From Clostridia bacterium (lineage in GTDB: Bacteria > Bacillota > Clostridia > UMGS1810): a stretch of 58,044 bases of DNA. Of the stretch, positions 33,898-52,077 are shown in pieces. The position numbers and the translations under genes were made by a program. Numbering within the stretch: the stretch's first letter is position 1; each line of letters opens with the position of its first letter. Below the pieces are notes generated by a model. It was not told the DNA's origin. It saw only the letters and a list, made by a program, of their open reading frames with translations, and searched no databases. The stretch lies in assembly GCA_017502845.1 (NCBI GenBank), contig JAFVUE010000001.1, positions 1 through 58,044 of the forward strand. Direction: 5' to 3'.

Positions 33898-35820
33898 ATG
33901 AGAATGACAAAGAGAATCATTGCTGTTATGGTAGCTGTTATGATGGTTATGGCTATGGCCGTATGCACAGTATCCGCTGCAGCAGTGGTTGACGAGTATG
34001 AAGTAATTGAGTTCGGTGTTTTCAATGCTGCCGGTACTGCTCCCGATACAATCGGTGCAGACAAGACCGTTACAGTTAAGGCAACACTGAGAAGAGTAGC
34101 CGGTGCTAACAACATTGATGACAGTGTTTCTGTTGTAGCAGCAGTTTACTCCGGTACAGAACTGGTGGATGTTTCTGTATCTACAAAGGATTATACATTT
34201 GCAGGTCCTGTACAGGATAATACAGTTCAGCTTACAATCCCTGCAGATAAAACAAACCTTACATTTAAGGCATTCCTCTGGGATGGCGATATGATCACAC
34301 CTCTTGCTAAAGCTTCTAACGAAGCAGTAGTTGAGGATATTGTAATTGCTGGTCAGAGTGTTGATTTTGATGCGGCTACAGCAACATATAATGTAGAACT
34401 TCCTGTAGGAACACCTGCTGAACCTGATGTAAAGGTTGTTTCAAACGGTCTTATTGATGCATCTGTTGCTTATAACGATGCTAAAACTGTTGCAACAGTT
34501 ACTGTTGGTGCAGATGTTTACACAATCAACTATACAATCGCAACAGTTGTAGGCGAACTGACAAATGTGTCATATACAAGTGAAACCACATATGCTTTTG
34601 ATGGTACTGCCAATGCTTTGAGAACACAGACAGTAAGACCTAACCTTGATGCAGACCTCTTCTATGACGAAGCAACAGGTGGTTACACAAAGACAATTTA
34701 TGATGTTTATGAGGTAACTGCATATACAGGTCTTGATCAGTATGTAACAGCTACAGTTTCCAACAGATATCCCTACTGGTTCTATATGAGTATGCCCGAG
34801 AAATTCGTTGGTATGACAGCACTTCTCGTTCCTTACACAAACCCTGATACAGTATATCCCGGAAATGACACAATAACATTCACAACCAACAAGAGCGTTC
34901 GTTTCTATGTATCATCTGATGCAAGTTGGGTTGACGGAAACGGCGTTTTAGATGGAACTTATACATTTGATGAACTCCGTCTTGCCGATTCAAATGCTCA
35001 TACAACAGATTATGCAACAATGTTGTCAACTTCACAGGGTGCTAACTACAGATTCTCTACAAACATGTACAAGTATGAGTTCATCCTTCCCGAAGGTCAG
35101 GAAACAATGACAGCAACTGTTAAAGTTAAGAGCGCAGGTACATGGGATTTCCCCCATATCTTCTATGAATTTATAGATACACCTGCTGAAGAAGCATCTG
35201 TTAATGTTACAAATGTATCATATAATGATGCAGGTGCTACAGTTCACTCCGGTACTGAACTCAAAATCGTAGATATTCTTGCTGAACCCGATCCTGCTGA
35301 TTTCTATGATGAAGCAACAAGTGCATACAGCAAATCTATGAGAGATGTACACGGTCTCCCCAATGGTCTTGCTGACCTTGCAAATGTTGTAACACCTATC
35401 GTTGCAAACAGATATCCCTATTGGTTCTATATTGATATGCCTGAAGAATTCGTAGGTATGAAAGCTATTCTCATTCCTTACACAAATCCCGGTACTGTTT
35501 ATGCAGGTTATGACTCAATTACTCTGACAACAGATAAGGATATCCGTGTATATGTTTCATCTACAAGTAACCATACCGACGCAGGTGCAGTTCTTGAAGG
35601 TACATACGCATTCCAGTATACAGCGCCCGGCGATTCTGCATCTATAGTAGGTTCATATGCAGATTTGCAGACAGCTGCTAATGGTAAGGCATTCACAACT
35701 CCTATCTATTCTTACGACATCATAGTTCCCGAAGGTCAGGCAACTGCAACAGCAACTATTAAAGTTCGTAGTGCAGGTACATGGTTCTTCCCCCAGATTT
35801 TCTTTGAGGAAATCAAATAA
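33898..35820 (+). CDS. Secreted protein with two copies of an unrecognised YPYWF domain
   Basis: A 640-aa exported protein. A signal peptide covers about 1-27 (cleavage near VSA-AA). A beta-type domain follows at about 30-140, then a cadherin-like beta-sandwich (PF12733-like, FDAATATYNVELPVG...YTINYT) at about 145-215. Two ~200-residue copies of a domain I do not recognise occupy 221-430 and 437-640. Each copy has NRYPYWFY, FVGM, PYTNP, TVYxG, YVSS and ends AGTWxFPxIFxEfI. There is no SLH domain or sorting signal. Threonine is mostly ACA and valine mostly GTA/GTT, unlike neighbouring housekeeping genes, suggesting high expression. The ATG at 33898 has AAGGAGG nine bases upstream. Function unknown; an extracellular structural or glycan-binding role is inferred. 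Confidence 0.75.
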   Translation: MRMTKRIIAVMVAVMMVMAMAVCTVSAAAVVDEYEVIEFGVFNAAGTAPDTIGADKTVTVKATLRRVAGANNIDDSVSVVAAVYSGTELVDVSVSTKDYTFAGPVQDNTVQLTIPADKTNLTFKAFLWDGDMITPLAKASNEAVVEDIVIAGQSVDFDAATATYNVELPVGTPAEPDVKVVSNGLIDASVAYNDAKTVATVTVGADVYTINYTIATVVGELTNVSYTSETTYAFDGTANALRTQTVRPNLDADLFYDEATGGYTKTIYDVYEVTAYTGLDQYVTATVSNRYPYWFYMSMPEKFVGMTALLVPYTNPDTVYPGNDTITFTTNKSVRFYVSSDASWVDGNGVLDGTYTFDELRLADSNAHTTDYATMLSTSQGANYRFSTNMYKYEFILPEGQETMTATVKVKSAGTWDFPHIFYEFIDTPAEEASVNVTNVSYNDAGATVHSGTELKIVDILAEPDPADFYDEATSAYSKSMRDVHGLPNGLADLANVVTPIVANRYPYWFYIDMPEEFVGMKAILIPYTNPGTVYAGYDSITLTTDKDIRVYVSSTSNHTDAGAVLEGTYAFQYTAPGDSASIVGSYADLQTAANGKAFTTPIYSYDIIVPEGQATATATIKVRSAGTWFFPQIFFEEIK

Positions 35821-35907
35821 TTGATATTTGAATATCTTATGAGGTAATTATAGAAAAAACAGATTGTTTAACCAATTCGGATACAATGTTTTTTTCATTA
35901 TATACCC

Positions 35908-35955
35908 AATCAAAAGCGACGACGGATTTTCCGCCGTCGCTTTTGATTTTCTTTG
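35908..35955 (+). terminator. Terminator after the first repeat-domain gene
   Basis: AATCAAAAGCGACGACGGA pairs with TCCGCCGTCGCTTTTGATT (one mismatch) around TTT, followed by TTTCTTT. The long stem separates this gene from the following operon. Confidence 0.85.
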
Positions 35956-35984
35956 ATTTACATTTGCACCTCTTCACGGCTACC

Positions 35985-36160
35985 GTATGCCTCCCTTGCC
36001 CTAAAGGGAGGGGGACCGTCGCAGACGGTGGAGGGATTGTGATTTTGTCCGCACTGCATTTTTACGGCTTGTATATATAACGGACTGTCGGGGACGCCAG
36101 TCCCTACAATTACGCACTACCTATGTTTCCACCGTAGGGAACGGATTCATCCGTTCCGTT
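35985..36160. repeat. Mosaic of intergenic palindromic repeat units
   Basis: Several degenerate units are strung together: CCCTTGCCCTAAAGGGAGGG with CCGTCGCAGACGG, then GGACTG...CAGTCC, then GGAACGGATTCATCCGTTCC (36138-36157), which is identical to the copy at 33241-33260. No gene is supported here. Confidence 0.7.
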
Positions 36161-36462
36161 TATGTTCGCGCTCCCTTACGGCTACACCATACCTTTCCTT
36201 TCCACCGTAGGGTTCGGCGGTTTCCGACGAACCGCTGTACTTGCGATTTCCTTTGACTGTGCTCAATTGTAAGGGCGATTGAAGAATCTCCTGTTTATGT
36301 TCGCACTCCCTTACGGCTACGTCATACCTTTCCTTTCCGCCGTAGGGTTCGGCGGTTTCCGACGAACCGCTGTACTTGCGATTTCCTTTGACTGTGCTCA
36401 ATTGTAAGGGCGATTCGAGAATCTCCTGTTTATGTTCGCACTCCCTTACGGCTACGTCATAC
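36161..36462. repeat. 135-bp tandem repeat (two full copies and a partial third)
   Basis: Units begin at 36161, 36296 and 36431, giving an exact 135-base period; the third breaks off near 36462. Each full unit contains GGTTCGGCGG...CCGACGAACC and an AAGGGCGATT segment. The two copies differ at only a handful of bases. Short open frames across it (minus strand) merely reflect the repeat and are not genes. A related GGACAG...CTGTCC unit follows to about 36510. Confidence 0.9.
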
Positions 36463-36592
36463 ATTTTCCATTCCACTGTAGGGACAGGCGTCCTCGACTG
36501 TCCGTTTCCTTTACATTCTCGCTCACATCTCGGCTACGGAACCCCTCAAAAAACCTGCAATTCCACGCATTTTAAGGGTTTTGGGCACGACG

Positions 36593-36864
36593 TTGCCCAA
36601 AGTTACAGGGCACTTTTAACAAAAATCTCAATATCTGTTGTAATGTATGACAAACTCACGGTTTTTCTATTGCAAAATCAGCCAAAATCATATAAAATGG
36701 TATCGTGAGGTGGACTATGTTTTTTTGCAGAAAACGCAGTTATTTTCAACTGTGAAAATCACTTGTTTTACCCCATCTCAACACTCTGCATTCTGCAGAA
36801 ATTTTACAATCGTTATTTAATGTTTAATATTAAATAAAAATATATTATTTTATGAGGTGACAAT
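36593..36864 (+). promoter_or_regulatory. Promoter and ~160-nt leader of the second repeat-domain gene
   Basis: The promoter is TTGCAA (36670-36675), 17 bases, TAAAAT (36693-36698). As upstream of the first gene, TTGCCCAAAGTTACAG lies 77 bases before the -35 element. The leader ends with TTTTACAATCG, an inverted repeat TTATTTAA/TTAAATAA and GAGGTGAC. The two upstream regions are clearly copies of one ancestor. Confidence 0.7.
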
Positions 36865-39570
36865 ATGAAAAGAACCAGAATTTTTTCACTCATTCTTCTC
36901 GTTGCAATGTTGTTTTCATTGTACACTCCGTCAGTAGTAATGGCAGACGCTGCCGTAGCTGCTTATGATGTAGTGGCTTTTGAATATTGCGACGGATCCG
37001 GCGATCCTATTGATGTTCTGTCGGCAAATGGCGTTGTTAAGGTAAACGCTACTATCAGAAACAATGTTGTTGATACAGCAGATGTAACCCTTATCCTTAT
37101 GGCGTATGATAACGGCAAACTTATCCGCCTTTCACAGGGTGTTGCATCTTTTGATAATGACGATGCTGTAGGAACAGAGATTCCCGTAACAGCTCAGTTC
37201 ACTCTTCCTGCTGATATTTCCAAAGTAAAGGTAATGACTTACTTCTGGGACAGTGCTCTCGGTATGGAACCCCTTGCTCCCGGTGGTGTATTTGATTCAG
37301 CAGATGCGTCAATCCTTTCTGCTAAAGTAGCAGGAGTAAGCGTTCCTGCATTTGATGCAAATAATTCTGCAACAGTAGCTCTTCCTGCAAGTGCATCCGA
37401 TGAACCGGCAGTTGAAGTAACCTGTGCAGACGTAACTACAACTGTTGTACCTACATATGCAGACGGTGTTATCACACTTACTGCCACAGCACATAACGGT
37501 ACAAGCAAAGTATATACAATCAATTACACTAAAGAAGCAGCAAAACTCACAAATGTTTCTTACACAAGTGATACTGTTTATGCCGAGGCAGATCTTAAAT
37601 TCTCTACTGTAAAGCCAAACTTTGACGCATCTCTTTTCTATGATGCGACTACAGAGGGCTATACAAAGACATTCAAAGATGTCTACGATGCATCACTTGC
37701 TACTCTGGATACAATCGTTACTCCCCATGTTGCAAACAGATATCCTTACTGGTTCTTGTTTGAAGTACCTGAAACATTTGTTGGTATGAATAATATCGTT
37801 GTTCCCTATAATAACGACACTGTTTATGCAGGTAACGACACAATCACATTCACAACCAATAAGAGCGTACGTTTCTACGTATCTTCTATAGACGGTTGGA
37901 AAGATGCTTCTGCAACCAATCTTGGTCCATTCACATTCAAACCCTCAAGAGGTGGCGATAGTGCTTCGGTTACTACATCTTATGCAGATATGAAATCCAC
38001 AGCAGAAGGTCAGCCATTTACTACAAATATTTATTCTTATGATGTGGCTGTTGCCGAGGGTGGTGCTCCAGTTACTGCAACTATTAAAGTTCGTAGTGCA
38101 GGCACATGGGCATTCCCCAATATCTACTACGAATTCATCGACAATAGCGAACTTGATACTCCTGTAGTTCCCGACCCCGATCCCACACCCGATCCGGATC
38201 CTACTCCTGATCCCGATCCTACTCCTGATCCCGATCCTACACCCGATCCTGAACCGGAGCCGGAACCCGATGATGGTGCTGAATTGACAAATGTATCTTA
38301 TGTAAGTGAGTCTACATATACTTTTGATGGTAGTGCCAATGCTCTGAAAACACAGACAGTAAGACCTAACCTTGATGCAGACCTTTTCCTTAATGAGGGA
38401 ACAGGCGAATACACAAAGACGATTTATGATGTTTATGAGGTAACTGCATATACAGGTCTTGATCAGTATGTAACATCTGTCGTTTCAAACAGATATCCCT
38501 ATTGGTTCTATATGAGTATGCCCGGGAAATTTGTTGGTATGACAGCACTCCTTGTTCCTTACACAAACCCCGATACAGTATATCCCGGAAATGACACAGT
38601 AACATTTACAACCAATAAGAGCGTACGTTTCTATGTATCATCTGATGCAAGTTGGGTTGACGAAAGCGGCGTTTTAGATGGAACTTATACATTTGATGAA
38701 CTCCGTCTTGGCGATAGTACTGCTCATACAACAGATTATGCAACAATGTTGTCAACTTCACAGGGTACTAACTACAGATTCTCCACGAATATGTATAAGT
38801 ACGAATTCATCCTTCCCGAAGGTCAGGAAACAATGACAGCAACTGTTAAAGTTAAGAGTGCTGGTACATGGGATTTCCCCCATATCTTCTATGAGTTCAT
38901 AGACACTCCTGCTGACGAAGAGGAAGAAGTAAATACACCTGCTAATGTTACTGCTGTAACATATACAGAAGATGACTCTACAGCACATTCCGGTGATGCA
39001 ATCAAAATCATAGATGTTGTAGCTGAACCTGATCCTGCTGATTTCTATGATGAGGCAACAAGCACATATAGCAAATCAATGGGAACAGTACACGGCATTT
39101 CAACTCTTACTGACCTTGCAAATGTTGTAACACCAATCGTTTCAAACAGATATCCCTATTGGTTCTATATGGATATGCCCGAGAAATTTGTTGGTATGAA
39201 AGCAATTATCGTTCCATACACAAACCCTGGTACTGTTTATGCAGGCGATGATACAGTTACTCTGACAACAGATAAGGACATCAGAGTATATGTTTCATCC
39301 ACATCAGGACATATTGATGAAAGTGCTACACTTGATGGCGAGTATACATTTGCTTATACTTCCGTTGGCGATTCCGCATCACTTACAAGTGCTTTTTCAG
39401 CTTTGCAGGAGGCAGCGGCGAATAAAGTGTTTACAACAAATATTTATTCTTACGACATCACAGTTCCCGAAGGAGAGACAACAGCAACAGCTACTATTAA
39501 AGTTCGCGGTGCGGGTACATGGTTCTTCCCCCAGATTTTCTTTGAGGAAATCGAAACTGTAGTTGAATAA
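36865..39570 (+). CDS. Secreted protein with three copies of the YPYWF domain
   Basis: A 901-aa exported protein. After a signal peptide (about 1-28) come a beta domain and a cadherin-like sandwich (to about 225), then YPYWF domain copy 1 (228-430). A low-complexity Asp-Pro-Thr-Pro linker (about 433-472) follows, then copy 2 (474-690) and copy 3 (695-901). Copies 2 and 3 are very close in protein and DNA to the two copies in the preceding gene, while copy 1 is more distant. So the N-terminal part matches the preceding protein's N-terminus and the C-terminal pair was probably added by duplication. It may be the first gene of a unit running to 53986, since later gaps are all under 85 bases. The function is unknown. 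Confidence 0.75.
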   Translation: MKRTRIFSLILLVAMLFSLYTPSVVMADAAVAAYDVVAFEYCDGSGDPIDVLSANGVVKVNATIRNNVVDTADVTLILMAYDNGKLIRLSQGVASFDNDDAVGTEIPVTAQFTLPADISKVKVMTYFWDSALGMEPLAPGGVFDSADASILSAKVAGVSVPAFDANNSATVALPASASDEPAVEVTCADVTTTVVPTYADGVITLTATAHNGTSKVYTINYTKEAAKLTNVSYTSDTVYAEADLKFSTVKPNFDASLFYDATTEGYTKTFKDVYDASLATLDTIVTPHVANRYPYWFLFEVPETFVGMNNIVVPYNNDTVYAGNDTITFTTNKSVRFYVSSIDGWKDASATNLGPFTFKPSRGGDSASVTTSYADMKSTAEGQPFTTNIYSYDVAVAEGGAPVTATIKVRSAGTWAFPNIYYEFIDNSELDTPVVPDPDPTPDPDPTPDPDPTPDPDPTPDPEPEPEPDDGAELTNVSYVSESTYTFDGSANALKTQTVRPNLDADLFLNEGTGEYTKTIYDVYEVTAYTGLDQYVTSVVSNRYPYWFYMSMPGKFVGMTALLVPYTNPDTVYPGNDTVTFTTNKSVRFYVSSDASWVDESGVLDGTYTFDELRLGDSTAHTTDYATMLSTSQGTNYRFSTNMYKYEFILPEGQETMTATVKVKSAGTWDFPHIFYEFIDTPADEEEEVNTPANVTAVTYTEDDSTAHSGDAIKIIDVVAEPDPADFYDEATSTYSKSMGTVHGISTLTDLANVVTPIVSNRYPYWFYMDMPEKFVGMKAIIVPYTNPGTVYAGDDTVTLTTDKDIRVYVSSTSGHIDESATLDGEYTFAYTSVGDSASLTSAFSALQEAAANKVFTTNIYSYDITVPEGETTATATIKVRGAGTWFFPQIFFEEIETVVE
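38166..38276 (+). repeat. Tandem Asp-Pro-Thr-Pro linker coding repeat
   Basis: An 18-base unit coding for DPTPDP repeats about five times with synonymous drift, then degenerates into EPEPEP. It encodes a stiff, extended linker between domain copies 1 and 2. Such Pro-Thr linkers are common between modules of clostridial cell-surface and cellulosomal proteins. Confidence 0.85.
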
Positions 39571-39634
39571 TTCAATATAAACCAAGTGGGAAAATCCCCG
39601 AATAACATAATCATTAGAAAGGCAGGTGCAAGAT

Positions 39635-42600
39635 ATGAAGAAATTACTTATTACTTTGGTATTCTCCGTAATACTTATATTTTCACTTGCCACCGTTGTT
39701 TCGGCCGATTCAATTGCTGTTGAAGCAGAGGATTTTAATATCACATCCGGTTTCTTTACCACATATTCAAATTCCAACGCTTCAAATGGCAAACATATCC
39801 GTGCAAATAATAACAACGCTTCTGATTCTATAAGAAACGAATCACATTTTACCCAGGTGGAAGCGGAGTATAAATTCTCCGTTTCCAATCCGGGTTTCCA
39901 TTCGGTTTATATCCGCATAGCAAACCCATCCGCCTACAATGGCGATTCCTGTTGGGTAACTCTTGACGGTGTTCTCTACGCCGTACACTTTGGTTCTGAT
40001 GACCTTAACTTTCGTTGGCAGAAGATAGTTATAACCAAGCTCACAGAGGGCGAACACACATTGCGTATTTACTGCCGTGAAGCAGGTGCGCAGATTGATA
40101 AATTCATCATAACCGGTAATCTGGCGTATCTGCCCACAGGTACAGGAACGCCACCTACGAGTGATGAGTACACCATCGACGATTTGCCAATCGGTGCCCC
40201 CGAGCAGAAACCACCTGCAAACGAGCACCCACGACTTCTTTTACGTGAGAGCGATATTCCCACAATCCGTGCTAATCTCACTCATCCACAGAACGAAGCG
40301 GCGTGGGAGAGAGTTCAGCAACTTGCTCAGAGCACCCGAAACGGAAATCAGGCAAGTTACAGCGCAGAACTTCTTGAGATAATGCAGGCAAAGGCGTTTA
40401 TGTATCTTATTGAGGGTGATGAGCAACGTGGAAGAGAAGCGGTTGATATTGTTCTCAACCATATGCGTAAATTCGCCGTGGCAAGTGGTTATGCAACCGA
40501 TGCTACAATGCGTTATACGGGACACTTCATATTTTCCACTGCTTGTGTATATGACTGGTGCTATGATCTGTTCACACCCGAGGAGCGAACTGAATATATC
40601 ACAAAGTGCGAAGAACTTGCAGTTCTGTATTTTGAGGGTGGATACCCCATAGTAGAACAACCCGGTGCAACAGGAAGCGCAGGTCATAGAGACGAGAACC
40701 CCCTGTTCAAGGATTTACTTGCGTTGGGTATCGCAACTTATGATGAAAAGCCATTTATCTACGAAAACGTAGCAGGTGTTCTTTACGAAAATTACTTTCC
40801 CTGGAGAAATATGGTTTATCCATCCGGTTGGAATCATCAGGGTGTACACACCTACGGAATATTCCGTACTGTATGGGAAGCGTTCTGTGCACAGATGCTT
40901 GATGTAATCGGTCAGCAGCCATTTACAGATGAGCAGAATGAATATGTTTATAAATATTTATATTTCCGTAGACCTGACGGCAGATATGTTATGGATGCGG
41001 ATGAAGCACCAAAATCGTTTACAAATACATTTCAGAATACAGACAGTGCACTTTACTTTATCATAGGAAACTTGTATGACGATTCTACACTTAAGTGGGC
41101 ATACTACCACGAAAGAGGAGATCTGGATTATACAAGCTTGGGTTATACAGCAGTCAATGCCCCTATGTATCTTGTTATGAATGACACTTCCGTAGGACTT
41201 GACAACACAAAAGATCTGCCCCTTACTCACTATTACGGTTCGCCTATTGGGGCAATGATAGCCCGTACTGATTGGGAAGAGGGTGCAGAATCTCCCACCG
41301 CAATTGCGGTTATGAAACCATTTGAAAATTACTTCGGCGGCCATATGCACCGTGAAGTCGGCTCATTCCAGTTCTATTATAAAGGAATGTTGGCACTTGA
41401 CTCTGGCGCTTACGAAGCCCCTGCTTATACTAAAGAAGACGGAACATCCGTTCCTGGTTCGGGCTGGGGAACAGGCCACTACATGAGTTACCTTTCCGCA
41501 CCGATTGCACATAATGTTTTAACTGTTTATGATGAGAGCAATCCTGCAGAAATTTCCTATGGCGGTCAGCGTATGGAAGAGGGAGGAAAATCCGCTCTCG
41601 GCACTCTTGCAGAATTCAAGGCGGGTTCTCATAAAACAGGTGAGATAATCGGTTATGATTACGGCCCCGATAAGCATACCCCCGAATTCAGTTATATCGA
41701 GGGCGACCTTACTGCAGGTTACAGATCGGACAGAGTTTCCGATTATTCCCGTTCATATATGTTCTTAAATCTTTTTGATGAAGATGTTCCTGCGGCACTT
41801 ATAGTATTCGACCGTATGACTTCCACCAATAAGAATTACAGAAAAGCATGGCTTCTCCATTCACAGGAGGAACCCGTTGTGGACGGAAACAATATTGTTA
41901 TCCACCGTACAGAGGGACATAATGACGGCAGAATGATAAACACAGTTCTTCTACCCGAAAACCCCGATATCACAAAAGTCGGCGGAGCGGGTTATGAGTA
42001 CTGGCTTGGTAATCAGAACGCAGAGATTTACCGTCAGCCCGTAGGGGACGAAAGCGGTACCTGGAGAATTGAGATAAGTCCCGAAACCAAAAGTACAAAG
42101 GATTATTTCCTCAATGTTATGCAAGTGAGCGATAACGATTCAACCGTTAAGCCATATAACGTAACATATAACGAACAGGGCTCATTCGTTGGTGTGTTCA
42201 TCTCCGACAGAGCCGTGTTTATGAAGAAAGACAAAGGCACAGTAAATACTGATTTCACCGTTACTGCAAATGGCAGCGGCGAAATCTCATACATAATAAC
42301 AAATCTTGCAGAGGGCAAGTGGACAGTTAAGAATTCCTCAGGGGCAACCGTTGCAACAGAAAATGTTGACGGCGACCACGGCGTACTCCGCTTTAGAGCA
42401 AACGCCGGAACATACACAGTTTCATTTGCATCTCAGTCAGGCATCAATCCCAAGACATTCAGTATCAAGGATGATGCACTTACAAAAGAATATACACCTG
42501 TAAGTGTGTATATAGACGATAACTACAACGGCAGAGGCATTGTGGTAGATGATGTTGTTATGATGGCGCTGGAGGATATTGCAAAACACTCCGGTTCTGC

Positions 42601-43978
42601 ATATAACATAACTTCAGATAGTTTTACTGCAACAGGTGTAAACGGTATTGTATCCGGTACAGTTGGAAGTGCTTCAGCCACAGTAAACGGCGAGGCAACG
42701 CAGTTTGCGGTTGCACCTGTAAATTATAATGGTACAATCTACGTTTCAATGAGCGACCTTGCAAGAGCATACGATTTCTCGTATGAATACGATGAACTCA
42801 CTTATATAATGCGCCTTGAATGTGTACCGAAGGCAAAGGTTGATGTAAAAGGCATCTCTGTTAATAACCTTGGTTGGTATAACGATGCGGGTAAGGAGAT
42901 AACATCGTTTACTCCCGGAGAGAATGTTACACTCAAAGCAGATGTTTCAAGGCACTTTGATATTAACGGTTCATCTGCCAAGGCAACACTTTATGCCGCA
43001 TTCTATAGTGGAAATCAACTTGTTGCACTTTCAAGTGATACGGAAACATTTGCAACCTACGGAAGCGTCGCTTCTTATGAAATGAAATTCAAGATCCCCG
43101 AAGATATTTCGCAGTGCAAACCCGTCCTGTTCTTCTGGAAAGACAAAACACTTGCACCTGTAGTATTAAGCGGTAATTCCCCGAAAGTTACGGGTGTTAC
43201 TGTAGGCGGTGTGAATATATCGGATTTTGATGCGGATGTTCTTACCTACGAGGTTGAATTACCGGAATACATTTCCGATACGCCCTATGTTGTATGCTAT
43301 AGTGATACAATAGGAGTTTCAGCAAAGGCAGAGTATGAAGAAGATAAAATTCTTCTCACAGTAAATAACTTTGCTGATGTTAAGACGTATACAATCAATA
43401 TCAAAAGAGCCGAGAAGAAACTTACTGTGGTATTTGATCCCAGCACTTCTTCGGAAGATGATATAATTACGCTTACCCAGGAATATGTAATGAAACAGCC
43501 GGACGTACGACTGGCAGACACTTCAAAGACACTTGCTCAGGCAATGGGTGATGATGCAGAAAACTTTGGCGAGTTTGCATCACTTGCGTATTACAACAGA
43601 AACTATATCTATTACGATAATGTTCCCGAGGAACTTGTCGGACTTAAGTATTACCCCACAGATTATTCGTTGCACAGATTCAACAGTTACAACACAATAA
43701 CTGTAACAACTCAGCAAGATGTCCGTTTGTACTTCTCATCAAGAGACAGTATCGTAAATAGCGGAGCACAGAAACTTACTCTTTCTGATCCCCTTACTAT
43801 GAGGAGAATGCTCAACACGGCAACCGTTATTGAAAATGCCGCATCTCACGAGATGACAGATAATATCTATTATATCGACCTGAGAGTTCCCATAGGGGAG
43901 ACAAGCGCTACAATAACGCTAAATACCTCTCATCCTGATTTCATTCCGGTTCTGTTTATGTACGAATATCTCAATTAA
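39635..43978 (+). CDS. Secreted heparinase II/III-like polysaccharide lyase with a C-terminal YPYWF module
   Basis: A 1447-aa exported enzyme. Signal peptide about 1-24, a carbohydrate-binding-like beta sandwich (about 26-170), then a heparinase II/III-type lyase: alpha/alpha barrel from HPRLLL (198), GWNHQGVHTYG with putative catalytic Asn400, His401 and Tyr407, and the beta domain motif HMHREVGSF (His570/His572) leading to LDSGAYE. Copper-amine-oxidase-like domain about 950-1065, then a beta domain, cadherin-like sandwich and divergent YPYWF domain (1068-1447), the same order as in the two preceding proteins. The family cuts uronic-acid polysaccharides (heparin, alginate, related glycans) by beta-elimination; the substrate is unknown. 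The start is ATG 39635, after AGGTG; the in-frame GTG at 39626 is part of that site. Confidence 0.8.
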   Translation: MKKLLITLVFSVILIFSLATVVSADSIAVEAEDFNITSGFFTTYSNSNASNGKHIRANNNNASDSIRNESHFTQVEAEYKFSVSNPGFHSVYIRIANPSAYNGDSCWVTLDGVLYAVHFGSDDLNFRWQKIVITKLTEGEHTLRIYCREAGAQIDKFIITGNLAYLPTGTGTPPTSDEYTIDDLPIGAPEQKPPANEHPRLLLRESDIPTIRANLTHPQNEAAWERVQQLAQSTRNGNQASYSAELLEIMQAKAFMYLIEGDEQRGREAVDIVLNHMRKFAVASGYATDATMRYTGHFIFSTACVYDWCYDLFTPEERTEYITKCEELAVLYFEGGYPIVEQPGATGSAGHRDENPLFKDLLALGIATYDEKPFIYENVAGVLYENYFPWRNMVYPSGWNHQGVHTYGIFRTVWEAFCAQMLDVIGQQPFTDEQNEYVYKYLYFRRPDGRYVMDADEAPKSFTNTFQNTDSALYFIIGNLYDDSTLKWAYYHERGDLDYTSLGYTAVNAPMYLVMNDTSVGLDNTKDLPLTHYYGSPIGAMIARTDWEEGAESPTAIAVMKPFENYFGGHMHREVGSFQFYYKGMLALDSGAYEAPAYTKEDGTSVPGSGWGTGHYMSYLSAPIAHNVLTVYDESNPAEISYGGQRMEEGGKSALGTLAEFKAGSHKTGEIIGYDYGPDKHTPEFSYIEGDLTAGYRSDRVSDYSRSYMFLNLFDEDVPAALIVFDRMTSTNKNYRKAWLLHSQEEPVVDGNNIVIHRTEGHNDGRMINTVLLPENPDITKVGGAGYEYWLGNQNAEIYRQPVGDESGTWRIEISPETKSTKDYFLNVMQVSDNDSTVKPYNVTYNEQGSFVGVFISDRAVFMKKDKGTVNTDFTVTANGSGEISYIITNLAEGKWTVKNSSGATVATENVDGDHGVLRFRANAGTYTVSFASQSGINPKTFSIKDDALTKEYTPVSVYIDDNYNGRGIVVDDVVMMALEDIAKHSGSAYNITSDSFTATGVNGIVSGTVGSASATVNGEATQFAVAPVNYNGTIYVSMSDLARAYDFSYEYDELTYIMRLECVPKAKVDVKGISVNNLGWYNDAGKEITSFTPGENVTLKADVSRHFDINGSSAKATLYAAFYSGNQLVALSSDTETFATYGSVASYEMKFKIPEDISQCKPVLFFWKDKTLAPVVLSGNSPKVTGVTVGGVNISDFDADVLTYEVELPEYISDTPYVVCYSDTIGVSAKAEYEEDKILLTVNNFADVKTYTINIKRAEKKLTVVFDPSTSSEDDIITLTQEYVMKQPDVRLADTSKTLAQAMGDDAENFGEFASLAYYNRNYIYYDNVPEELVGLKYYPTDYSLHRFNSYNTITVTTQQDVRLYFSSRDSIVNSGAQKLTLSDPLTMRRMLNTATVIENAASHEMTDNIYYIDLRVPIGETSATITLNTSHPDFIPVLFMYEYLN

Positions 43979-44010: not shown

Positions 44011-47000
44011 ATGAAGAAAGTACTTGTAACACTTGTGTTTTCTCTGCTGCTGATGTTTGCCCTTGCAATAGGCGTATCAGCAGAAACCATTGCCATAGAG
44101 GCAGAGGATTTTGAGATACACGGTGGTTATACCATTCAGCAGAGCGAACAATCCTCCGGAGGAAAGTGCATTGTCGCTAATATTACAAATGCAATAGTGG
44201 CAAGAAACCCCGCCGACTTCGGTGGAGAAAACGCTATTGCAAAGGTAACATTTAATGAAACGGCAAACTATTCTATGTATGTGCGAGTAGCAAACCCCGC
44301 AGCATACAACGGCGACTCGCTGTTCTTCGTGCATGATGATGTTGTGCATGAGTTTCACTTCGGTGTTGACCATCTTGATTTCTACTGGAAAAAAGTTGGC
44401 GTAGCGAAATTTACCGCAGGTGAGCATACAATCCGAATCTATGCCCGTGAACAGGGTGGTATGGTAGATAAAGTTATTATCACAAGCGATCCGTTCTTCA
44501 CACCCGAGGGTGTGGGCGAACTTCCCGAGAGAAATTCTATTCTCTTCCATAACGGAGAGGGCGATGTAAGATCTCCTCTTCCGGCGGTAGTTCCTCCCGA
44601 TGAACATCCACGACTCCTTGTCCGTGCAAGTGATCTTCCCCGTATCAGAGAAACTCTCACACACCCCCAGAATATAGCGGCTTATGAGAGAACTCTTGAA
44701 AAAGCAAAATCAACCAATAGAGGCGATCAGGCATCTTATAGCACAGATCTTCTTGAAGAGATGCAGGCAAAAGCATTCCTCTACCTTGTAGAGGGCGATG
44801 TGGAAATGGGTAAACAGGCAGTCGAAATGGTTATGAACCATATCCAGAAAGTACAGATTGCTACAACATTCGCATCTGACTCAACAATGAGAAGTGCAGG
44901 TCATGTTGTATTCTCAACCGCTTGTGTATATGACTGGTGTTATGACCTGTTCACACCTGAACAGAGACAGATTTATATTCAGAGTTGTTCAGACCTTATC
45001 ACATTGAACTTCGAGGGTGGTTTCCCCAACGTAGAAAAACAGGATGTGCCCACAACAGCAGGACACAGCGTTGAGAACCCGTACTATAAAGACCAGTTGG
45101 CATTTGCAATAGCAGTTTATGATGAGGATCCTTTCTATTATAATAACCTTGTTGGTGTTCTCAACATGAACTACTTCCCCTTACTTAACTGGTACTATCC
45201 CTCACACTGGATGACACAGGGTGTATCAACCTATGGTGACTTCCGTTCTGTATGGGAACTCTTCTGTGCATATATGCTGGACACTCTCGGACAGAAACCC
45301 TTCATCGACGAAGGTCCTCACTATACACTTTATAAGTCAATCTACTGGCGCCGTCCTGACGGACACTTCTTTACAGACTCTGATGAAACAAGAAAAGTAT
45401 TTGACGGTACATATGTAAAGAACGCACATATGAACTACCTTGTGGCAGGTAATATGTACAGAGACCCCGTTCTTAAATGGCAGTATTTTAAGAATAAAGC
45501 AGATACTGATTATGTAAGTACAGGAATTACTTCACTTACAGCGCCTATGTATCTTCTTATGAACGATACAACAGTAGAGCTTGATAACAGAGCAGTACTT
45601 CCCCTTACGAAATATTATCCCTCTCCCGTGGGTAATATGATAGCACGTACAAGTTGGGATGAGGACTATGATTCCAGAGCAATGATGGTTTCTATGAAAC
45701 CACAGGAAACATACTTCTCACAGCATACACACGTAGAGGTTGGTAACTTTACTGTATATTACAAAGGTATGCTTGCTCTTGACTCCGGTTCATACGAAGC
45801 ACCTGCATATACAAAAGAAGACGGAACAGCCGTTGCAAGTTCAGTTTGGGGTAGCGGACATTATATGAATTACCTTACACAGCCCGTTGCTCACAATGTA
45901 ATGCTCGTATACGATCCTACAAATCCCTCCGAGATAAGATCGGGTGGACAGAGAATGCAACCCGGTGCATATAACTCAATCAAAACATACTCATCGTTTA
46001 TGAACGGCTCTAATAATACAGGCAAAAACCTTGCTTACGATTACGGCCCGGATAAACAGGCACCTGAATACAGTTACCTTGAGGGCGATATCACAGCCGG
46101 TTATAAACCCGAGAGAGTTAAGGACTACACTCGTTCTTATATGTTCTTAAACCTCTTCGACGATGAGATTCCTGGTGCATTTATAGTATTCGACAGAATC
46201 AAATCAGCCGATCCCGCACTTGAAAAGGCATGGCTTCTCCACTCCATGGAAGAGCCAAAAGTAGACGGCAATATTATTACAATTGATAATACTTCACTTC
46301 ACAATAACGGCCGTCTTACCAATACAATTCTTGCACCCTCTGATTTTAAGGTAGAGAAAGTCGGTGGTCCCGGTAAAGAGTTCTGGGATGGCACAGCCAA
46401 CCTTGAGATTTACCGTCAGCCCATAGGCGATGAAGCCGGAGACTGGCGTGTAGAGATTCATACAGAGGGTAAGAGAGAACAGGATTACTTCCTTAATGTA
46501 ATTCAGGCAAGTGATGCTGACGACAACATTAAACACCACGAAGTTACTTCAAACGAGCAGGGCGAATTTGTAGCAGTATTCGTTGCTGACCGTGCAGTAT
46601 TTATGAAGAAAGACCGTGGCAGCGTATACAGAGATTTCACAGTAACTGCAGAGGGCGAGGGCGATATTTCCTATATCATCACAAACCTTGCAGAGGGCAG
46701 ATGGACTGTTAAGGATTCAGAGGGCAATGTTGTTTATGCCGAAGATGTTTCCGGAGAGCACACAGTATTGCGCTTCCGTGCAAAAGCAGGTACATATAAT
46801 GTATCCTGGGAATACAAACTCGGTATTGAATCAAAAGTGTTTAACGTTTTAGCCGATGCTAAACGCCTTGATTACACTCCTGTAGATGTATTCTTAAACG
46901 ATAAGCACTATACAGACAGAGGCCGTCTTGAAGATGGCGTGATAATGCTTTCTCTTGATTCACTTGCAAAGAATACAAACCGCACAACATTTACAGTTGA

Positions 47001-47688
47001 AAACGGTACATTTACCGTTAAAGGCGGCGTGGGCGAGATGACAGGCACAGTTGACAGCGCAGATGTTGTTATTAACGGAAATCCTGTAAAACTCTCTGTT
47101 CCTGTAAGAGAATTTGACGGTAAGATTTACATTCCTATGGATGACTGTATGCACGATGTATATGAATATATGTCAGAGTACGATTCTCTCACATATATCC
47201 TCTACTTCCGTGGCGGTTACTATATGGTACCCGGTGCACACACCTCAATCGTTAACTCCGAACTCCGCAACAGAGCAGATATCATTGCCACAACCTGCAG
47301 TGAGATCAATGCAGAGGTTAACCCACCCGAGGCGAGTCTTGACGATAACTACTCTACTTACTGGTGTAGTTCCGGCAGCGGCGAGTGGATTACTTACGAA
47401 CTTGCTGAAGAATACGAACTCACAGGTTTAGGTCTTGCGTGGGCATCCGGTCACTTAAGACAGGAACACTTCGCAGTTCATGTTTCAACAGACGGTGTAA
47501 CCTGGACAGAGGTATGGAGAGGCGATTCTTCCGGTAAGACAGACCGAATCGAAGATTTTATGTTCTCTGCACCTATTAAAGCAAAGTATGTGAAACTTGA
47601 ATGTAATGAGAATACAGTTAATATGATGAACTCACTTTATGAAACACACGTTTACTGTACAGAAAAGATTCCTTATTACGAGAAATAA
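44011..47688 (+). CDS. Secreted heparinase II/III-like protein with F5/8C domain, altered active site
   Basis: A 1225-aa paralogue of the preceding lyase, alignable through the signal peptide, binding domain and lyase region. Where the first enzyme has GWNHQGVHTYG, this one reads HWMTQGVSTYG (399-409): the Asn-His pair becomes Met401-Thr402, though the Tyr and the HTHVEVGNF histidines remain. It may be inactive, a binding protein, or of changed mechanism. A copper-amine-oxidase-like domain (about 955-1070) is followed by an F5/8 type C (discoidin, CBM32-like) domain at about 1085-1225, replacing the YPYWF module. It is 32 bases after the first lyase gene, so the two are probably co-expressed. 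Confidence 0.8.
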   Translation: MKKVLVTLVFSLLLMFALAIGVSAETIAIEAEDFEIHGGYTIQQSEQSSGGKCIVANITNAIVARNPADFGGENAIAKVTFNETANYSMYVRVANPAAYNGDSLFFVHDDVVHEFHFGVDHLDFYWKKVGVAKFTAGEHTIRIYAREQGGMVDKVIITSDPFFTPEGVGELPERNSILFHNGEGDVRSPLPAVVPPDEHPRLLVRASDLPRIRETLTHPQNIAAYERTLEKAKSTNRGDQASYSTDLLEEMQAKAFLYLVEGDVEMGKQAVEMVMNHIQKVQIATTFASDSTMRSAGHVVFSTACVYDWCYDLFTPEQRQIYIQSCSDLITLNFEGGFPNVEKQDVPTTAGHSVENPYYKDQLAFAIAVYDEDPFYYNNLVGVLNMNYFPLLNWYYPSHWMTQGVSTYGDFRSVWELFCAYMLDTLGQKPFIDEGPHYTLYKSIYWRRPDGHFFTDSDETRKVFDGTYVKNAHMNYLVAGNMYRDPVLKWQYFKNKADTDYVSTGITSLTAPMYLLMNDTTVELDNRAVLPLTKYYPSPVGNMIARTSWDEDYDSRAMMVSMKPQETYFSQHTHVEVGNFTVYYKGMLALDSGSYEAPAYTKEDGTAVASSVWGSGHYMNYLTQPVAHNVMLVYDPTNPSEIRSGGQRMQPGAYNSIKTYSSFMNGSNNTGKNLAYDYGPDKQAPEYSYLEGDITAGYKPERVKDYTRSYMFLNLFDDEIPGAFIVFDRIKSADPALEKAWLLHSMEEPKVDGNIITIDNTSLHNNGRLTNTILAPSDFKVEKVGGPGKEFWDGTANLEIYRQPIGDEAGDWRVEIHTEGKREQDYFLNVIQASDADDNIKHHEVTSNEQGEFVAVFVADRAVFMKKDRGSVYRDFTVTAEGEGDISYIITNLAEGRWTVKDSEGNVVYAEDVSGEHTVLRFRAKAGTYNVSWEYKLGIESKVFNVLADAKRLDYTPVDVFLNDKHYTDRGRLEDGVIMLSLDSLAKNTNRTTFTVENGTFTVKGGVGEMTGTVDSADVVINGNPVKLSVPVREFDGKIYIPMDDCMHDVYEYMSEYDSLTYILYFRGGYYMVPGAHTSIVNSELRNRADIIATTCSEINAEVNPPEASLDDNYSTYWCSSGSGEWITYELAEEYELTGLGLAWASGHLRQEHFAVHVSTDGVTWTEVWRGDSSGKTDRIEDFMFSAPIKAKYVKLECNENTVNMMNSLYETHVYCTEKIPYYEK

Positions 47689-47770: not shown

Positions 47771-49513
47771 ATGAAGAAATTGATTTCTTTGGTATTGTCA
47801 GCGCTGCTTGTATTTTCAATGACAGCAGTATATGCGGCTCCCACTGCAGATGACATTACCTACACTGTGCGCCTCAGCACAGATGATGACGGCACTATCA
47901 TCCAGACCGTTGTCATAAACGGAAGCGGCGCAGATGCCGGTGAATTCGTTACACTCAGAATCTGGAAAGACGGTATGAGTGAAGCCGATTACGACGATGA
48001 TCCGTCAGCCCGTGTGGATGATATTGACCTTTTTGCAGTTCTTCTGCAGACGGTTGCTGATGAAAACGGCGAATTTGAATTTGAATTCCTTTTTGATGAG
48101 GAAGCAGCAGATTACCGTGCCGATATCAAGTCAGCAGGAGATACCGCGGTGCAGAAGACAATCTCCACAGCCGATGTTGAAGCGGCAAACGATTTCCTTG
48201 AGATGATAAACGATGCGGCACAACTCGCAGTAATGGATACAGACGATTTTGCGCCTGTACTTGATGCACCCTCTGATTATGGTCTGGTGCTCACAACCTT
48301 CGACCGCCTGACACCTGCTAATCAGGAAGCAGTTCTTGAAGCTGCAATTGATCTCTTTATTGCGAATAACGATGACGGTATAGAGAATACTATCGAAACT
48401 GTTACCAATGTTATAGGCGAGAACACAATACTTGCAATTTTCGACCAGACAGACGATGCGGATATCCTTGCAGAAGCATTCACAGTATACGCTGATATCG
48501 TAGATATCGAAAACCTCGAAAATGCCGCAGGTATAGATGACCTCTTTGATGGCTTTGAAGATGAGCAGAGCGAAGTTTTCGCCGCAATGGGCAATAAAGA
48601 ATACGACGATGTAGAAGATCTTCTTGAAGCATTCAAAGAAAGAGTATTCTTAAAAGCAATAAAAGATACACAGTATTATAATGAACTTGCTCCCATCATC
48701 GAGGGTAACCTTGATTACCTTGAACTTGATGAAGATGCATTGGAAGAATACGAAGATTCTTCTGCAGTAAGAACATTTGTTCTCAAAGCACTCAATAAAG
48801 CAAAATCAGGTATCAAAACTGTTGCAAAGTTCAAACTTTCATTTGAAAATGCAGTAGGGGACTACGGCAAGGACGATAAAGGCGGTTCAACAGGCAGTGG
48901 AACATCTACAAATGTTACCGTAAGTTCTGACCTTATCCCCAACGATATTGCACAACCCACTGCAGGTGTTTACAGCGATATGGCAGGACACTGGGCATAT
49001 CCGGCGGTATCTTACCTCTCCAATACCCGAATCGTTTCAGGTCGTGGCGACGGCACATTCGATCCCAATGCACCTATTACACGTGCAGAATTTGTTAAGA
49101 TGATTGTTGAGGCATATGGCCTTTACGATTCCAGAGCAACAGCTGACTTTGTTGATGTAAGCACATCCGACTGGTACTACGGTTATGTTGCTTCTATGGT
49201 TAAGAGGGGCTATATTCTCGGTAATGATGAAGGCAAATTCAATCCTAATGCAATCATATCCCGTCAGGATATGGCAGTAATTCTTTACAGAACACTTCAG
49301 GGCAAAAATCTTGTAAAGGTTATCCCCACACTTGAGAAACTCTTCACAGACTTTGATACAGTTTCTCCCTACGCACAGAACAGCGTAACTTATCTTTCAA
49401 ATATGGGACTCATCAATGGCTCTGACGGTATGTACAGACCGCATGATTCCTCAACACGTGCAGAAGCTGCACAGGTATTGTTTAATGCTATTATGGAGGT
49501 GGGTGTAAGATGA
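47771..49513 (+). CDS. S-layer homology (SLH) domain protein
   Basis: A 580-aa secreted protein with a signal peptide (about 1-22). An acidic helical region of unknown function (about 30-370) is followed by three C-terminal SLH repeats: about 401-445 (YSDMAGHWAYPAVSYL), 460-505 (FVDVSTSDWYYGYV) and 525-575 (FTDFDTVSPYAQNSV). SLH triplets bind pyruvylated secondary cell-wall polymers, so this protein is probably held on the cell surface. Its stop overlaps the next start by 4 bases (ATGA). Confidence 0.85.
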   Translation: MKKLISLVLSALLVFSMTAVYAAPTADDITYTVRLSTDDDGTIIQTVVINGSGADAGEFVTLRIWKDGMSEADYDDDPSARVDDIDLFAVLLQTVADENGEFEFEFLFDEEAADYRADIKSAGDTAVQKTISTADVEAANDFLEMINDAAQLAVMDTDDFAPVLDAPSDYGLVLTTFDRLTPANQEAVLEAAIDLFIANNDDGIENTIETVTNVIGENTILAIFDQTDDADILAEAFTVYADIVDIENLENAAGIDDLFDGFEDEQSEVFAAMGNKEYDDVEDLLEAFKERVFLKAIKDTQYYNELAPIIEGNLDYLELDEDALEEYEDSSAVRTFVLKALNKAKSGIKTVAKFKLSFENAVGDYGKDDKGGSTGSGTSTNVTVSSDLIPNDIAQPTAGVYSDMAGHWAYPAVSYLSNTRIVSGRGDGTFDPNAPITRAEFVKMIVEAYGLYDSRATADFVDVSTSDWYYGYVASMVKRGYILGNDEGKFNPNAIISRQDMAVILYRTLQGKNLVKVIPTLEKLFTDFDTVSPYAQNSVTYLSNMGLINGSDGMYRPHDSSTRAEAAQVLFNAIMEVGVR

Positions 49514-52077
49514 TGAAAAGATTATCAGCATTACTTTTAATCGTTGCCCTTGTTGCAACATCAATATTCGTTATACCTGCTTCTGCTGAAACAGCAACTG
49601 CAGATGCATCTTTTGAGATAGAATTCTTAAAAGCAATCGGAATTTTTGATGAAAACTTTAACACTAATGTTCCTGTAACAAGAGGAACTTATGCTAATTA
49701 TGTTGCACGTCTTATGGGCGATGTTCCTCCCTCAACATCTGCATCTGTTGTATACGTGGATGTTAAGGCAGAAGATCCCAACTGTGCAGGTATTTCACTC
49801 CTCACATCACACGGTATACTCAACGGTTACGGCGACGGAACCTTCCTTCCCGACCGTCCTGTTACTCTCAATGAGGCAGTTAAACCCCTCGTTGATATGC
49901 TCGGTTATAAATACCGTGCAAATCTCAATGGCGGTTATCCCAACGGCTATATGATTGCTGCACAGGATCTTGGCCTTTTCAAAGGTATCGAGATCAAGGC
50001 AGGTTATATGTACGGCGACGATTTTGCAAAACTTCTCTATAATGCACTTGATGTAGATGTTCTTCTTGAAAACGGTATTATCAAGAAAGACGGAGAAACA
50101 TCTTCAATGATGGAATCCGTTGAGGGTAAAACTCTTCTTACAGAAAATCTTGATATGTACATTGAAGAGGGCGTTGTAAATGCAAACTATGTTACAAGCA
50201 TTTCAGGCGATGTTGTAGCTGAAAATCAGCTCAATATCGGTGGTACAGTAGTTACTGCTACTGATGCAAAATACTTCGATATGGTTGGATGCTATGTAGA
50301 GTATGTATATTATCAGAAAGAGAACACAAAAGAGAAAGTTCTTGTATACGCTCAGCCCGAGGCAGGAAGCACGCTTACCCTTACAAAAGAGACACTTATC
50401 AGCGTAGACGGCCTTGACGTGCAGTACAGTGATGAGAACGGTAAACTCAAGAAAGCAAAACTCTCCGGCGAAGTTGATTTCGTATATAACGGCGATGTCG
50501 TAATTTTTGATCAGGACTATATTGATAATTTCAATGTAGGTACAATCCGCCTTGTAAACAGCGATGGTGATAATGATTACGATGTATTCTTTATTGAAAA
50601 CTACACAAGCTTCGTTGTAGATAGCGTTAACAGCACACAGAAGAAAGCAGATTCTTCAGTTCAGCTCGGTTTCTCATTATCACTTGATCCTGATAACTAC
50701 GGAATTATGCACCTTGTAAATTCTGCAGGAAATGCGGTAAATTTTGAAGATGTAAATAAAGGCACAGTGCTTTCTTACTATGTAAACGGCAATTACTTAA
50801 AGGCAATCGTTTCCAAGGAAATAGGCGAGGGTGAGATTGAGTCAATCAGAACCGGTGCAATGGGCACAGAGTATACAGTAGGCGGTAAGGTATATAAAGA
50901 ATCTCCTCTCTATGCTGCAAACACAGCAGAAGTTGGGGATGTCGTTACACTTTATGTTGATGCATTCGGTTATATTTCCGACATCAAACTTGGCTTTAAC
51001 GATAACCTGCAGGTGGGTTTCCTCCTTAAGGGGGCAAGAGATTATAACGGTCTTAATAAAGCATACGGCTTCAAGATTTACACACCCCAGGATAAAGTTT
51101 TAGTTGTATATGCTGCTGATAAAGTATCATATAACGGTACTTCCACAAAGATGGAAGATCTCCCTGCTACACTTTCACAGAGTATTATCTGCTATCAGCT
51201 CAATGAAGAGGGTAACCTCAATGTTCTTGAAACTCCCGTTCCGAGAGATGAAAACTATGTAGACGGTCGCCTTATGGCTATCTATCCCAAGACAGAAAGT
51301 TCACCCTATTACAGTAATATGATTGATTCCAGAATAGTAAAAGACGGAACTACAGTTGTATTCTCTATAGCCGATGTTGAGGGCGATATTACTGAAAGTA
51401 TGATCAAGTCAACACCTACAGCTCTTACAGACCGTGAATCATATACACTTGAGGGCTTTGCTATTTCCAAGGAAGCACCCCGTCTTAAAGTACTTATTAA
51501 GTACGGTGAAGTATCAGATATCATCCCCAGAGGCGAAAACCTTGCAACGGTTGTGAAGTTTGAGCAGGTACTCGGCGATAACGGTATGGATGAATATAAG
51601 ATGGATGTACTTGTAGAGGGTATCGAAAGATCCTTTACCGTTGCAGATGATGTAACAGGTGTTGAGAGTCCCACAGACTTCCTCCCCGGCGATACATTCC
51701 GTTACGGAACAAATTCCGACGGTGCGATTGACAAAGTTGACCGTATGTACAGAGTGGAAGAGGGTTGGCTGCCTGATTCATACGAATACTTCCCTGTTGA
51801 GGGTATTACTGAAACTGTAATGCACTACGGCGAAGTGCTTTCAAATGACGGTGCATACTTAAGAGTTAAATTTGATGACACTCCTTATACAGGATTCATT
51901 CAGGACTATTATGCAATTCCTATGTCCCACTACACAGCGGCAACTGTTGTTACAATCAGCGGCAGAGGTTGCACAGTTACAAAGGGCAGAATTCAGGATG
52001 CTAATGTAGGCGATATGGTTATCAACTACCGTAACCTTATGGCGGCTGTTGGCTTTGTAGTAATTAAGTTTGAATAA
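49510..52077 (+). CDS. Large secreted SLH-like protein of unknown function
   Basis: An 855-aa exported protein with a signal peptide (about 1-25). An N-terminal SLH-like region (about 30-190) has VYVDVKAEDPNCAGISLL, GYGDGTFLPDRPVTLNEAVK and a third, weaker repeat. The remaining ~650 residues are beta-rich and show no family I recognise. SLH repeats lie at the N-terminus, opposite to the gene before it. The ATGA overlap indicates coupled synthesis. A second ATG directly follows the first (ATGATG), so either may be used. Confidence 0.7.
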   Translation: MMKRLSALLLIVALVATSIFVIPASAETATADASFEIEFLKAIGIFDENFNTNVPVTRGTYANYVARLMGDVPPSTSASVVYVDVKAEDPNCAGISLLTSHGILNGYGDGTFLPDRPVTLNEAVKPLVDMLGYKYRANLNGGYPNGYMIAAQDLGLFKGIEIKAGYMYGDDFAKLLYNALDVDVLLENGIIKKDGETSSMMESVEGKTLLTENLDMYIEEGVVNANYVTSISGDVVAENQLNIGGTVVTATDAKYFDMVGCYVEYVYYQKENTKEKVLVYAQPEAGSTLTLTKETLISVDGLDVQYSDENGKLKKAKLSGEVDFVYNGDVVIFDQDYIDNFNVGTIRLVNSDGDNDYDVFFIENYTSFVVDSVNSTQKKADSSVQLGFSLSLDPDNYGIMHLVNSAGNAVNFEDVNKGTVLSYYVNGNYLKAIVSKEIGEGEIESIRTGAMGTEYTVGGKVYKESPLYAANTAEVGDVVTLYVDAFGYISDIKLGFNDNLQVGFLLKGARDYNGLNKAYGFKIYTPQDKVLVVYAADKVSYNGTSTKMEDLPATLSQSIICYQLNEEGNLNVLETPVPRDENYVDGRLMAIYPKTESSPYYSNMIDSRIVKDGTTVVFSIADVEGDITESMIKSTPTALTDRESYTLEGFAISKEAPRLKVLIKYGEVSDIIPRGENLATVVKFEQVLGDNGMDEYKMDVLVEGIERSFTVADDVTGVESPTDFLPGDTFRYGTNSDGAIDKVDRMYRVEEGWLPDSYEYFPVEGITETVMHYGEVLSNDGAYLRVKFDDTPYTGFIQDYYAIPMSHYTAATVVTISGRGCTVTKGRIQDANVGDMVINYRNLMAAVGFVVIKFE

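What the first reader, a model, noticed from the sequence alone, without database searches (positions are those of the whole stretch)
33898..43978. An unrecognised extracellular domain (YPYWF domain) present six times in three adjacent proteins
Seen directly: residues 221-430 and 437-640 of the first protein, 228-430, 474-690 and 695-901 of the second, and 1263-1447 of the lyase align on a common pattern. The pattern is NRYPYWFY, then PE-x-FVGM, PYTNP, TVYxG, a TT-x-K-x-xR-x-YVSS strand, and a final AGTWxFPxIFxE. I know no named family with this signature. The copy number (2, 3, 1) and tandem layout suggest a structural or glycan-binding unit.
Basis: partly seen in the sequence, partly recalled or inferred. 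Interest (0 to 1): 0.78.

Follow-up and report, generated by a model that had tools for sequence, protein, structure and literature searches.

The report
Unnamed domain of polysaccharide-lyase accessory proteins
Three neighbouring secreted proteins of a small-genome clostridial bacterium carry six copies of a real, still unnamed beta-sandwich domain, which turns out to be a far-diverged branch of a wider uncatalogued domain found on or beside enzymes that cut uronic-acid sugars, so it most likely helps a heparinase-like enzyme hold its polysaccharide at the cell surface.

Summary
The six copies are real. Leave-one-out profiles recover every one, the divergent lyase copy included (6e-11 against 2,000 shuffles). 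No Pfam or NCBIfam family covers them, apart from one spurious DUF3575 match. The domain is not an orphan. The same genome and one congener hold nine more copies, five of them a diverged "type 2". Class-wide searches found a "type 3" in another family, with the same protein architecture, again directly upstream of heparinase II-like lyases. Type 3 joins by profile to a domain on pectinesterases and on PL1, PL10 and RGL11 pectin/rhamnogalacturonan lyases. That domain in turn matches the C-terminal domain of the solved GH2 enzyme 6hpd (E 4e-7). Independently, the AlphaFold model of a window copy (pLDDT 85) is closest to that same 6hpd domain (Z 9.1), then to that of GH138 (Z 7.3), with the next entry at 3.2. 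Conclusion: a genus-specific branch of an uncatalogued accessory-domain superfamily that accompanies uronate-polysaccharide enzymes. Most likely role: secreted, tandem glycan-handling modules serving a heparinase II-type lyase cluster. Binding is inferred, not shown. The copies are acidic, so simple electrostatic binding of a sulfated glycan is unlikely. The rivals are a passive spacer or a protein-docking module.

The parts
33898..35820 (+). Protein A (640 aa from ATG 33898): signal peptide, Ig-like + cadherin-like module, two YPYWF domains
   Evidence: ORF and RBS
33991..34542 (+). N-terminal Ig-like plus cadherin-like module of A (approximate limits), shared with B, with the C-terminal part of lyase C and with proteins of another family (G190, G041)
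   Evidence: alignment; cadherin-like PF12733 weak hit in the G190 protein
34555..35178 (+). YPYWF domain copy A1
35203..35817 (+). YPYWF domain copy A2
35920..35939 (+). terminator-like hairpin after protein A; a 1,044-base gap then separates A from B
   Evidence: consensus match only
36865..39570 (+). Protein B (901 aa): signal peptide, Ig-like + cadherin-like module, three YPYWF domains
37543..38142 (+). YPYWF domain copy B1
38155..38277 (+). PDPTPDPDP linker between B1 and the B2-B3 block
   Evidence: sequence
38281..38904 (+). YPYWF domain copy B2 (91% identical to A1)
38944..39555 (+). YPYWF domain copy B3 (72% identical to A2); the copy modelled by AlphaFold
39626..43978 (+). Protein C (1450 aa): heparinase II-like lyase with C-terminal accessory domains
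40214..42418 (+). catalytic part of C, aligned end to end with Pedobacter heparinase II (2fuq, E 5.7e-118)
   Evidence: NF045571 517 bits, below its 600-bit cut-off
42539..42805 (+). Cu_amine_oxidN1-type module of C
42833..43390 (+). Ig-like plus cadherin-like module of C (same kind as the N-terminus of A and B)
43415..43975 (+). diverged YPYWF domain copy on lyase C
   Evidence: leave-one-out E 6.3e-11; type-2 profile E 6.9e-8
44011..47688 (+). Protein D: second heparinase II-like lyase, ending in an F5/8 type C domain instead
47771..49513 (+). SLH-domain protein of the cluster
49510..52077 (+). second SLH-domain protein of the cluster
52094..53986 (+). GH20-type N-acetyl-hexosaminidase of the cluster

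Best explanation
The YPYWF domain is a beta-sandwich accessory domain of about 205 residues, a far-diverged, genus-specific branch of an uncatalogued superfamily carried by, or encoded beside, enzymes that attack uronic-acid polysaccharides (pectin, rhamnogalacturonan, ulvan, glycosaminoglycan-type). Proteins A and B are secreted, non-catalytic strings of these domains. They most likely bind the polymer or its fragments outside the cell and concentrate them for the heparinase II-like lyases C and D, much as surface glycan-binding proteins do in Bacteroides loci; the copy fused to lyase C plays the same part in cis. SLH proteins of the same cluster would provide the wall anchoring that A and B lack. 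Shown: the homology chain, the predicted fold, the gene neighbourhood and the fusion. Inferred: carbohydrate binding, ligand identity, localisation and partnership with the SLH proteins.
For: Fold: window copy B3 modelled at pLDDT 85.2, pTM 0.83. Best solved match is the C-terminal domain of GH2 enzyme 6hpd (residues 849-990, Z 9.1, 129 residues, 3.1 A), then the C-terminal domain of GH138 enzyme 6hzf/6hze (Z 7.3/7.1); the next entry is at 3.2. Sequence: types 1+2 versus type 3, hhalign 97.7%, score 84.6; type 3 versus the pectinase-associated domain (its alignment including the 6hpd piece), 98.5%, score 97.2. Null controls (100 column shuffles per comparison, reversed profiles, the unrelated N-terminal module) stay at score <= 25.4, prob <= 6.5%. 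A profile of the pectinase-associated domains, without 6hpd, finds 6hpd in the PDB at E 3.9e-7, next hit 0.79. So sequence and structure lead independently to the same solved domain. Context: seven of seven clusters with SLH-free tandem proteins have them directly upstream (2-98 nt between genes, same strand) of a HepII/III-type lyase: window, L022, L023, G190, two in G041, and G148, where a PL8 lyase is also fused to the domain. The G190 and G041 C10 lyases pass the NCBIfam HepB cut-off (602 and 607 against 600). The pectinase-associated form sits on pectinesterase, PL10, RGL11, PL1 and PelZ-like proteins, several with dockerins. Lyase C keeps the catalytic His/Glu/Tyr/His of heparinase II in the alignment (residue roles from memory).
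Against: No binding has been measured for any member that I know of. The copies are acidic (pI 4.1-4.7 for 14 of 15, net charge down to -20), which argues against plain electrostatic binding of a sulfated anionic glycan, although the other secreted proteins here are acidic too. Direct comparison of the YPYWF profile with the pectinase profile is weak (43%), so the link rests on type 3 as a bridge and on the fold. Foldseek itself gave no significant hit (best E 0.089). No GH88/GH105 gene was found in the three genomes of the genus and no sulfatase in this one (genomes 72-88% complete), so a heparin-type substrate is not established. Several lyase clusters of the genus lack the domain.
Confidence: 0.6

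Rival explanations
1. Passive spacer: the domains are stiff beta-sandwich beads that hold the lyase or the N-terminal module away from the wall, with no ligand.
For: Tandem layout with Pro-rich linkers and Ig-/cadherin-like beads; rapid divergence with few invariant residues (9 invariant columns in 15 copies); copy number varies 1-5 per protein; array exchange between A and B.
Against: A and B have no enzyme to space. The relatives on pectinases occur as single copies on enzymes, and keep a conserved core signature ((D/N)R..Y....P..l.G).
Confidence: 0.22
2. Protein docking: the domains, or the shared Ig/cadherin module, assemble A, B, the lyases and the SLH proteins into a surface complex.
For: A, B and lyase C share the same Ig-like + cadherin-like module; A and B lack SLH domains while the cluster encodes two SLH proteins; a similar set recurs in G190 and G041.
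Against: On free pectinases with dockerins, docking is already provided; no pairing partner domain is recognisable.
Confidence: 0.13
3. Adhesin: A and B attach the cell to host mucosa or food particles independently of the lyases.
For: Secreted tandem-domain proteins of a gut-associated lineage (the congener is a goat rectum MAG).
Against: Strict placement beside lyases, and fusion to a HepII-like lyase and to a PL8 lyase.
Confidence: 0.05

Closest known systems
C-terminal domain of the GH2 enzyme 6hpd (residues about 849-990)
   Same: Same predicted beta-sandwich over 129 residues (Z 9.1); reached independently by sequence through type 3 and the pectinase-associated domain.
   Different: About 8% identity; the window copies carry an extra N-terminal region with helices (residues about 30-60), occur in tandem, and lack the D-x-R...P-x-W-L stretch seen in the pectinase form.
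C-terminal domain of GH138 6hzf/6hze (rhamnogalacturonan II enzyme, residues 733-873)
   Same: Second-best fold match, Z 7.3/7.1; also on an enzyme for a uronate polysaccharide.
   Different: No sequence link detected here.
Pectinase-associated domain (pectinesterase, PL1, PL10, RGL11 proteins of Clostridia; no Pfam or NCBIfam model covers it)
   Same: Shares the (D/N)R..Y....P..L.G core and strand pattern through type 3.
   Different: Single copies on enzymes, about 140 aa, no YPYWF, conserved D-x-R...P-x-W-L motif.
Surface glycan-binding proteins of Bacteroides loci, such as BT4661 of the heparin locus (PMC9067506)
   Same: Works like: a non-catalytic secreted protein encoded beside heparin-type lyases.
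   Different: No sequence or fold relation tested; a Gram-positive system with SLH proteins and, in relatives, ABC transporters instead of SusC/D.

Membership tests
6hpd-type / pectinase-associated accessory-domain superfamily | same beta-sandwich fold | tested here: met
   Z 9.1 to 6hpd, 7.3 to 6hzf, next 3.2; model pLDDT 85
6hpd-type / pectinase-associated accessory-domain superfamily | profile similarity to the pectinase-associated domain | tested here: inconclusive
   direct 43% (score 32.5, above all nulls); transitive through type 3 at 97.7% and 98.5%
6hpd-type / pectinase-associated accessory-domain superfamily | core signature (D/N)R..Y....P..l.G, then a strand ending VYV/RFYVSS | tested here: met
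   joint alignment; weaker in type 2
6hpd-type / pectinase-associated accessory-domain superfamily | attached to or beside enzymes acting on uronate polysaccharides | tested here: met
   lyase C fusion, lyases C/D next door; relatives
Carbohydrate-binding module | demonstrated carbohydrate binding | not testable with these tools
   needs purified protein
DUF3575 (PF12099) | match of the copies to the family profile above its cut-off | tested here: not met
   one copy context passes (27.5 against 21.1 bits in protein B), but only 2 of 15 copies match alone, at best E 0.0024, over the N-terminal half only
Heparinase II (HepB; lyase C) | end-to-end similarity and catalytic residues | tested here: met
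   E 5.7e-118 to 2fuq with the His, Glu, Tyr, His positions kept
Heparinase II (HepB; lyase C) | NCBIfam equivalog cut-off of 600 bits | tested here: not met
   516.8 bits, so substrate identity is not assured
SLH-anchored S-layer protein (A, B) | SLH domains | tested here: not met
   no SLH hit in A or B

The most novel reading that the evidence does not exclude
The domain is one lineage of an undescribed carbohydrate-binding superfamily specialised on uronic-acid polysaccharides, spanning enzymes for pectin, rhamnogalacturonan, ulvan and glycosaminoglycan-type polymers. In these clostridia it has been cut loose from the enzymes into free tandem catcher proteins, a Gram-positive counterpart of surface glycan-binding proteins.
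Probability: 0.35. Interest if true: 0.6.

Novelty: new variant of a known kind. Interest (0 to 1): 0.45.

Why it matters
No curated library tested covers this superfamily, although it accompanies many pectin-, glycosaminoglycan- and ulvan-type enzymes; naming it would annotate many 'hypothetical' stretches and give a candidate new carbohydrate-binding family with an existing crystal structure (6hpd) to start from. A 2022 review notes that knowledge of the glycosaminoglycan machinery of gut Firmicutes lags far behind that of Bacteroides (PMC9067506); this cluster type (tandem catcher + HepII lyase + SLH proteins) is a concrete candidate to test.

Tried and rejected
DUF3575 as the family: rejected (see membership test). 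Direct PDB sequence searches with the domain profiles: only chance hits. Viral contigs: no relative. Genome-contig scan: only the congener L022. Foldseek without the second aligner: no hit under E 0.05. Full-length model of protein A: pLDDT 61, not used. S-layer protein: A and B lack SLH. Heparin degradation as an established substrate: not accepted, as no GH88/GH105 was found in the genus and no sulfatase in this genome. The first alignment of pectinase-type copies held five rows read on the wrong strand; it was redone and only the corrected one is used. Papers on the GH138 and heparinase II structures are not held; in the PmeC5 paper (PMC12109409) the passages found by a term search did not describe this domain.

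Full report
Observation. The three genes at 33898-43978 hold the six repeats described. Alignment A1 gives 20 invariant columns over six rows. Leave-one-out profiles, with near-identical sister copies also removed, recover each repeat: E 2.5e-64 to 7e-70 for the five in proteins A and B, and 6.3e-11 for the one on the lyase, against 2,000 shuffled decoys whose best score in these searches is about 0.015. The lyase copy lacks YPYWF and AGTW and is about 25% identical to the others.

Extent. The same genome (820 kb, 72% complete) has a second cluster on contig C9 with one more type-1 copy and four copies of a diverged type 2 (L023). A congener (goat rectum MAG, L022) has three type-1 copies and one type-2 copy in the syntenic cluster. 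Types 1 and 2 are homologous over the C-terminal 136 columns (hhalign 95.8%; reversed control 0.6%). A pattern-based scan of about 85,000 species genomes found only the congener, and a search of 391 genomes of the class found types 1 and 2 only in this genus. Tree and identities show A1/B2 (91%) and A2/B3 (72%) as pairs: a two-domain block was copied between A and B. A similar exchange is seen in the C9 pair (c635_1/c877_3 77%, c635_2/c877_2 76%).

Wider relatives. The class-wide search gave two weak hits, and both proved informative. G190 encodes a secreted protein with the same plan as A, an Ig-like plus cadherin-like module followed by two domains (type 3). It lies 6 nt upstream of a heparinase II-like lyase, downstream of an ABC transporter and solute-binding protein, and upstream of an SLH protein. 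G331 is a pectate lyase whose N-terminal domain matches. More type-3 arrays lie in G041, G148, G043, G075 and G191; the G043 protein carries SLH domains. In G148 a type-3 copy is fused to a PL8 lyase with SLH domains. The pectinase form occurs with pectinesterase, PL10, RGL11 and dockerin domains, and no Pfam or NCBIfam model covers it.

Homology tests. Profile-profile: types 1+2 to type 3, 97.7% (score 84.6, 138 columns); type 3 to pectinase form, 98.5% (97.2, 128 columns); types 1+2 directly to pectinase form, 43% (32.5). One hundred column shuffles per comparison reach at most 20; reversed profiles and the neighbouring Ig/cadherin module reach at most 25.4. The 6hpd fragment was a row of the pectinase alignment used there. 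A pectinase-form profile built without 6hpd finds it in the PDB at E 3.9e-7 with the next hit at 0.79.

Structure. Copy B3 modelled with an alignment of ten sequences gives pLDDT 85.2 and pTM 0.83. Foldseek gave nothing significant. Realigning its 1,000 best candidates put 6hpd residues 849-990 first (Z 9.1, rmsd 3.1, 129 aligned), GH138 6hzf/6hze next (7.3/7.1), then nothing above 3.2. The fold search knew nothing of the sequence chain, so the agreement on 6hpd is independent support.

Context and function. Seven clusters with SLH-free tandem proteins all place them immediately 5' of a HepII/III-type lyase on the same strand, with gaps under 100 nt; two of these are orthologous (window and L022). 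The partner lyases of G190 and G041 C10 exceed the NCBIfam HepB cut-off (602 and 607); lyase C has 517 bits but aligns end to end with Pedobacter heparinase II and keeps the catalytic positions. The common denominator of the enzymes across the superfamily is a uronic-acid-containing substrate (family knowledge for PL1, PL8, PL10, PL11, PL21-like and GH138; 6hpd is titled a beta-glucuronidase of GH2, and that it acts on ulvan is from memory). This supports a role in handling such polymers. Binding itself is not shown, the copies are acidic, and spacer or docking roles remain possible. The substrate is open: the genus lacks a detectable GH88/GH105 gene, and this incomplete genome a sulfatase.

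Verdict. A real and unnamed domain, best described as a genus-specific variant of an uncatalogued accessory-domain superfamily rather than an isolated novelty.

Noticed in passing
window 35956-36515: The 1,044-base gap between A and B holds two 135-base tandem repeats at 96% identity (36158-36427), a partial third unit, and a 39-nt inverted repeat pair 368 nt apart (82%); a hairpin with the sequence GGAACGGATTCATCCGTTCC lies at 36138-36157 and also at 33241-33260, upstream of A.
   Followed up: partly
window 34555-35178 versus 38281-38904: Copies A1 and B2 are 91% identical in DNA, with 30 synonymous and 18 nonsynonymous differing codons, which points to recent block duplication or gene conversion between A and B.
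   Followed up: partly
G000 contigs C1, C2, C9 (L123, window, L127): At least six heparinase II-like lyases in an 820-kb genome, in clusters with paired SLH-type proteins of about 600 and 860-890 aa; other clusters of the genus (L123-L126) lack the YPYWF proteins, and several have an about 430-480-aa secreted protein next to the lyase instead.
   Followed up: partly
L118, L119, L120, L050: A separate conserved trio in other clostridia: a propeller-like 840-aa protein, an about 890-aa SLH-type protein, and a type-3 repeat protein (SLH-bearing in G043), sometimes beside a solute-binding protein; function unknown.
   Followed up: no
L022, end of lyase 11394-15269; L023, end of lyase 8336-12103: The orthologous and paralogous lyases stop after the Ig/cadherin module and lack the YPYWF copy that lyase C of the window carries.
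   Followed up: no
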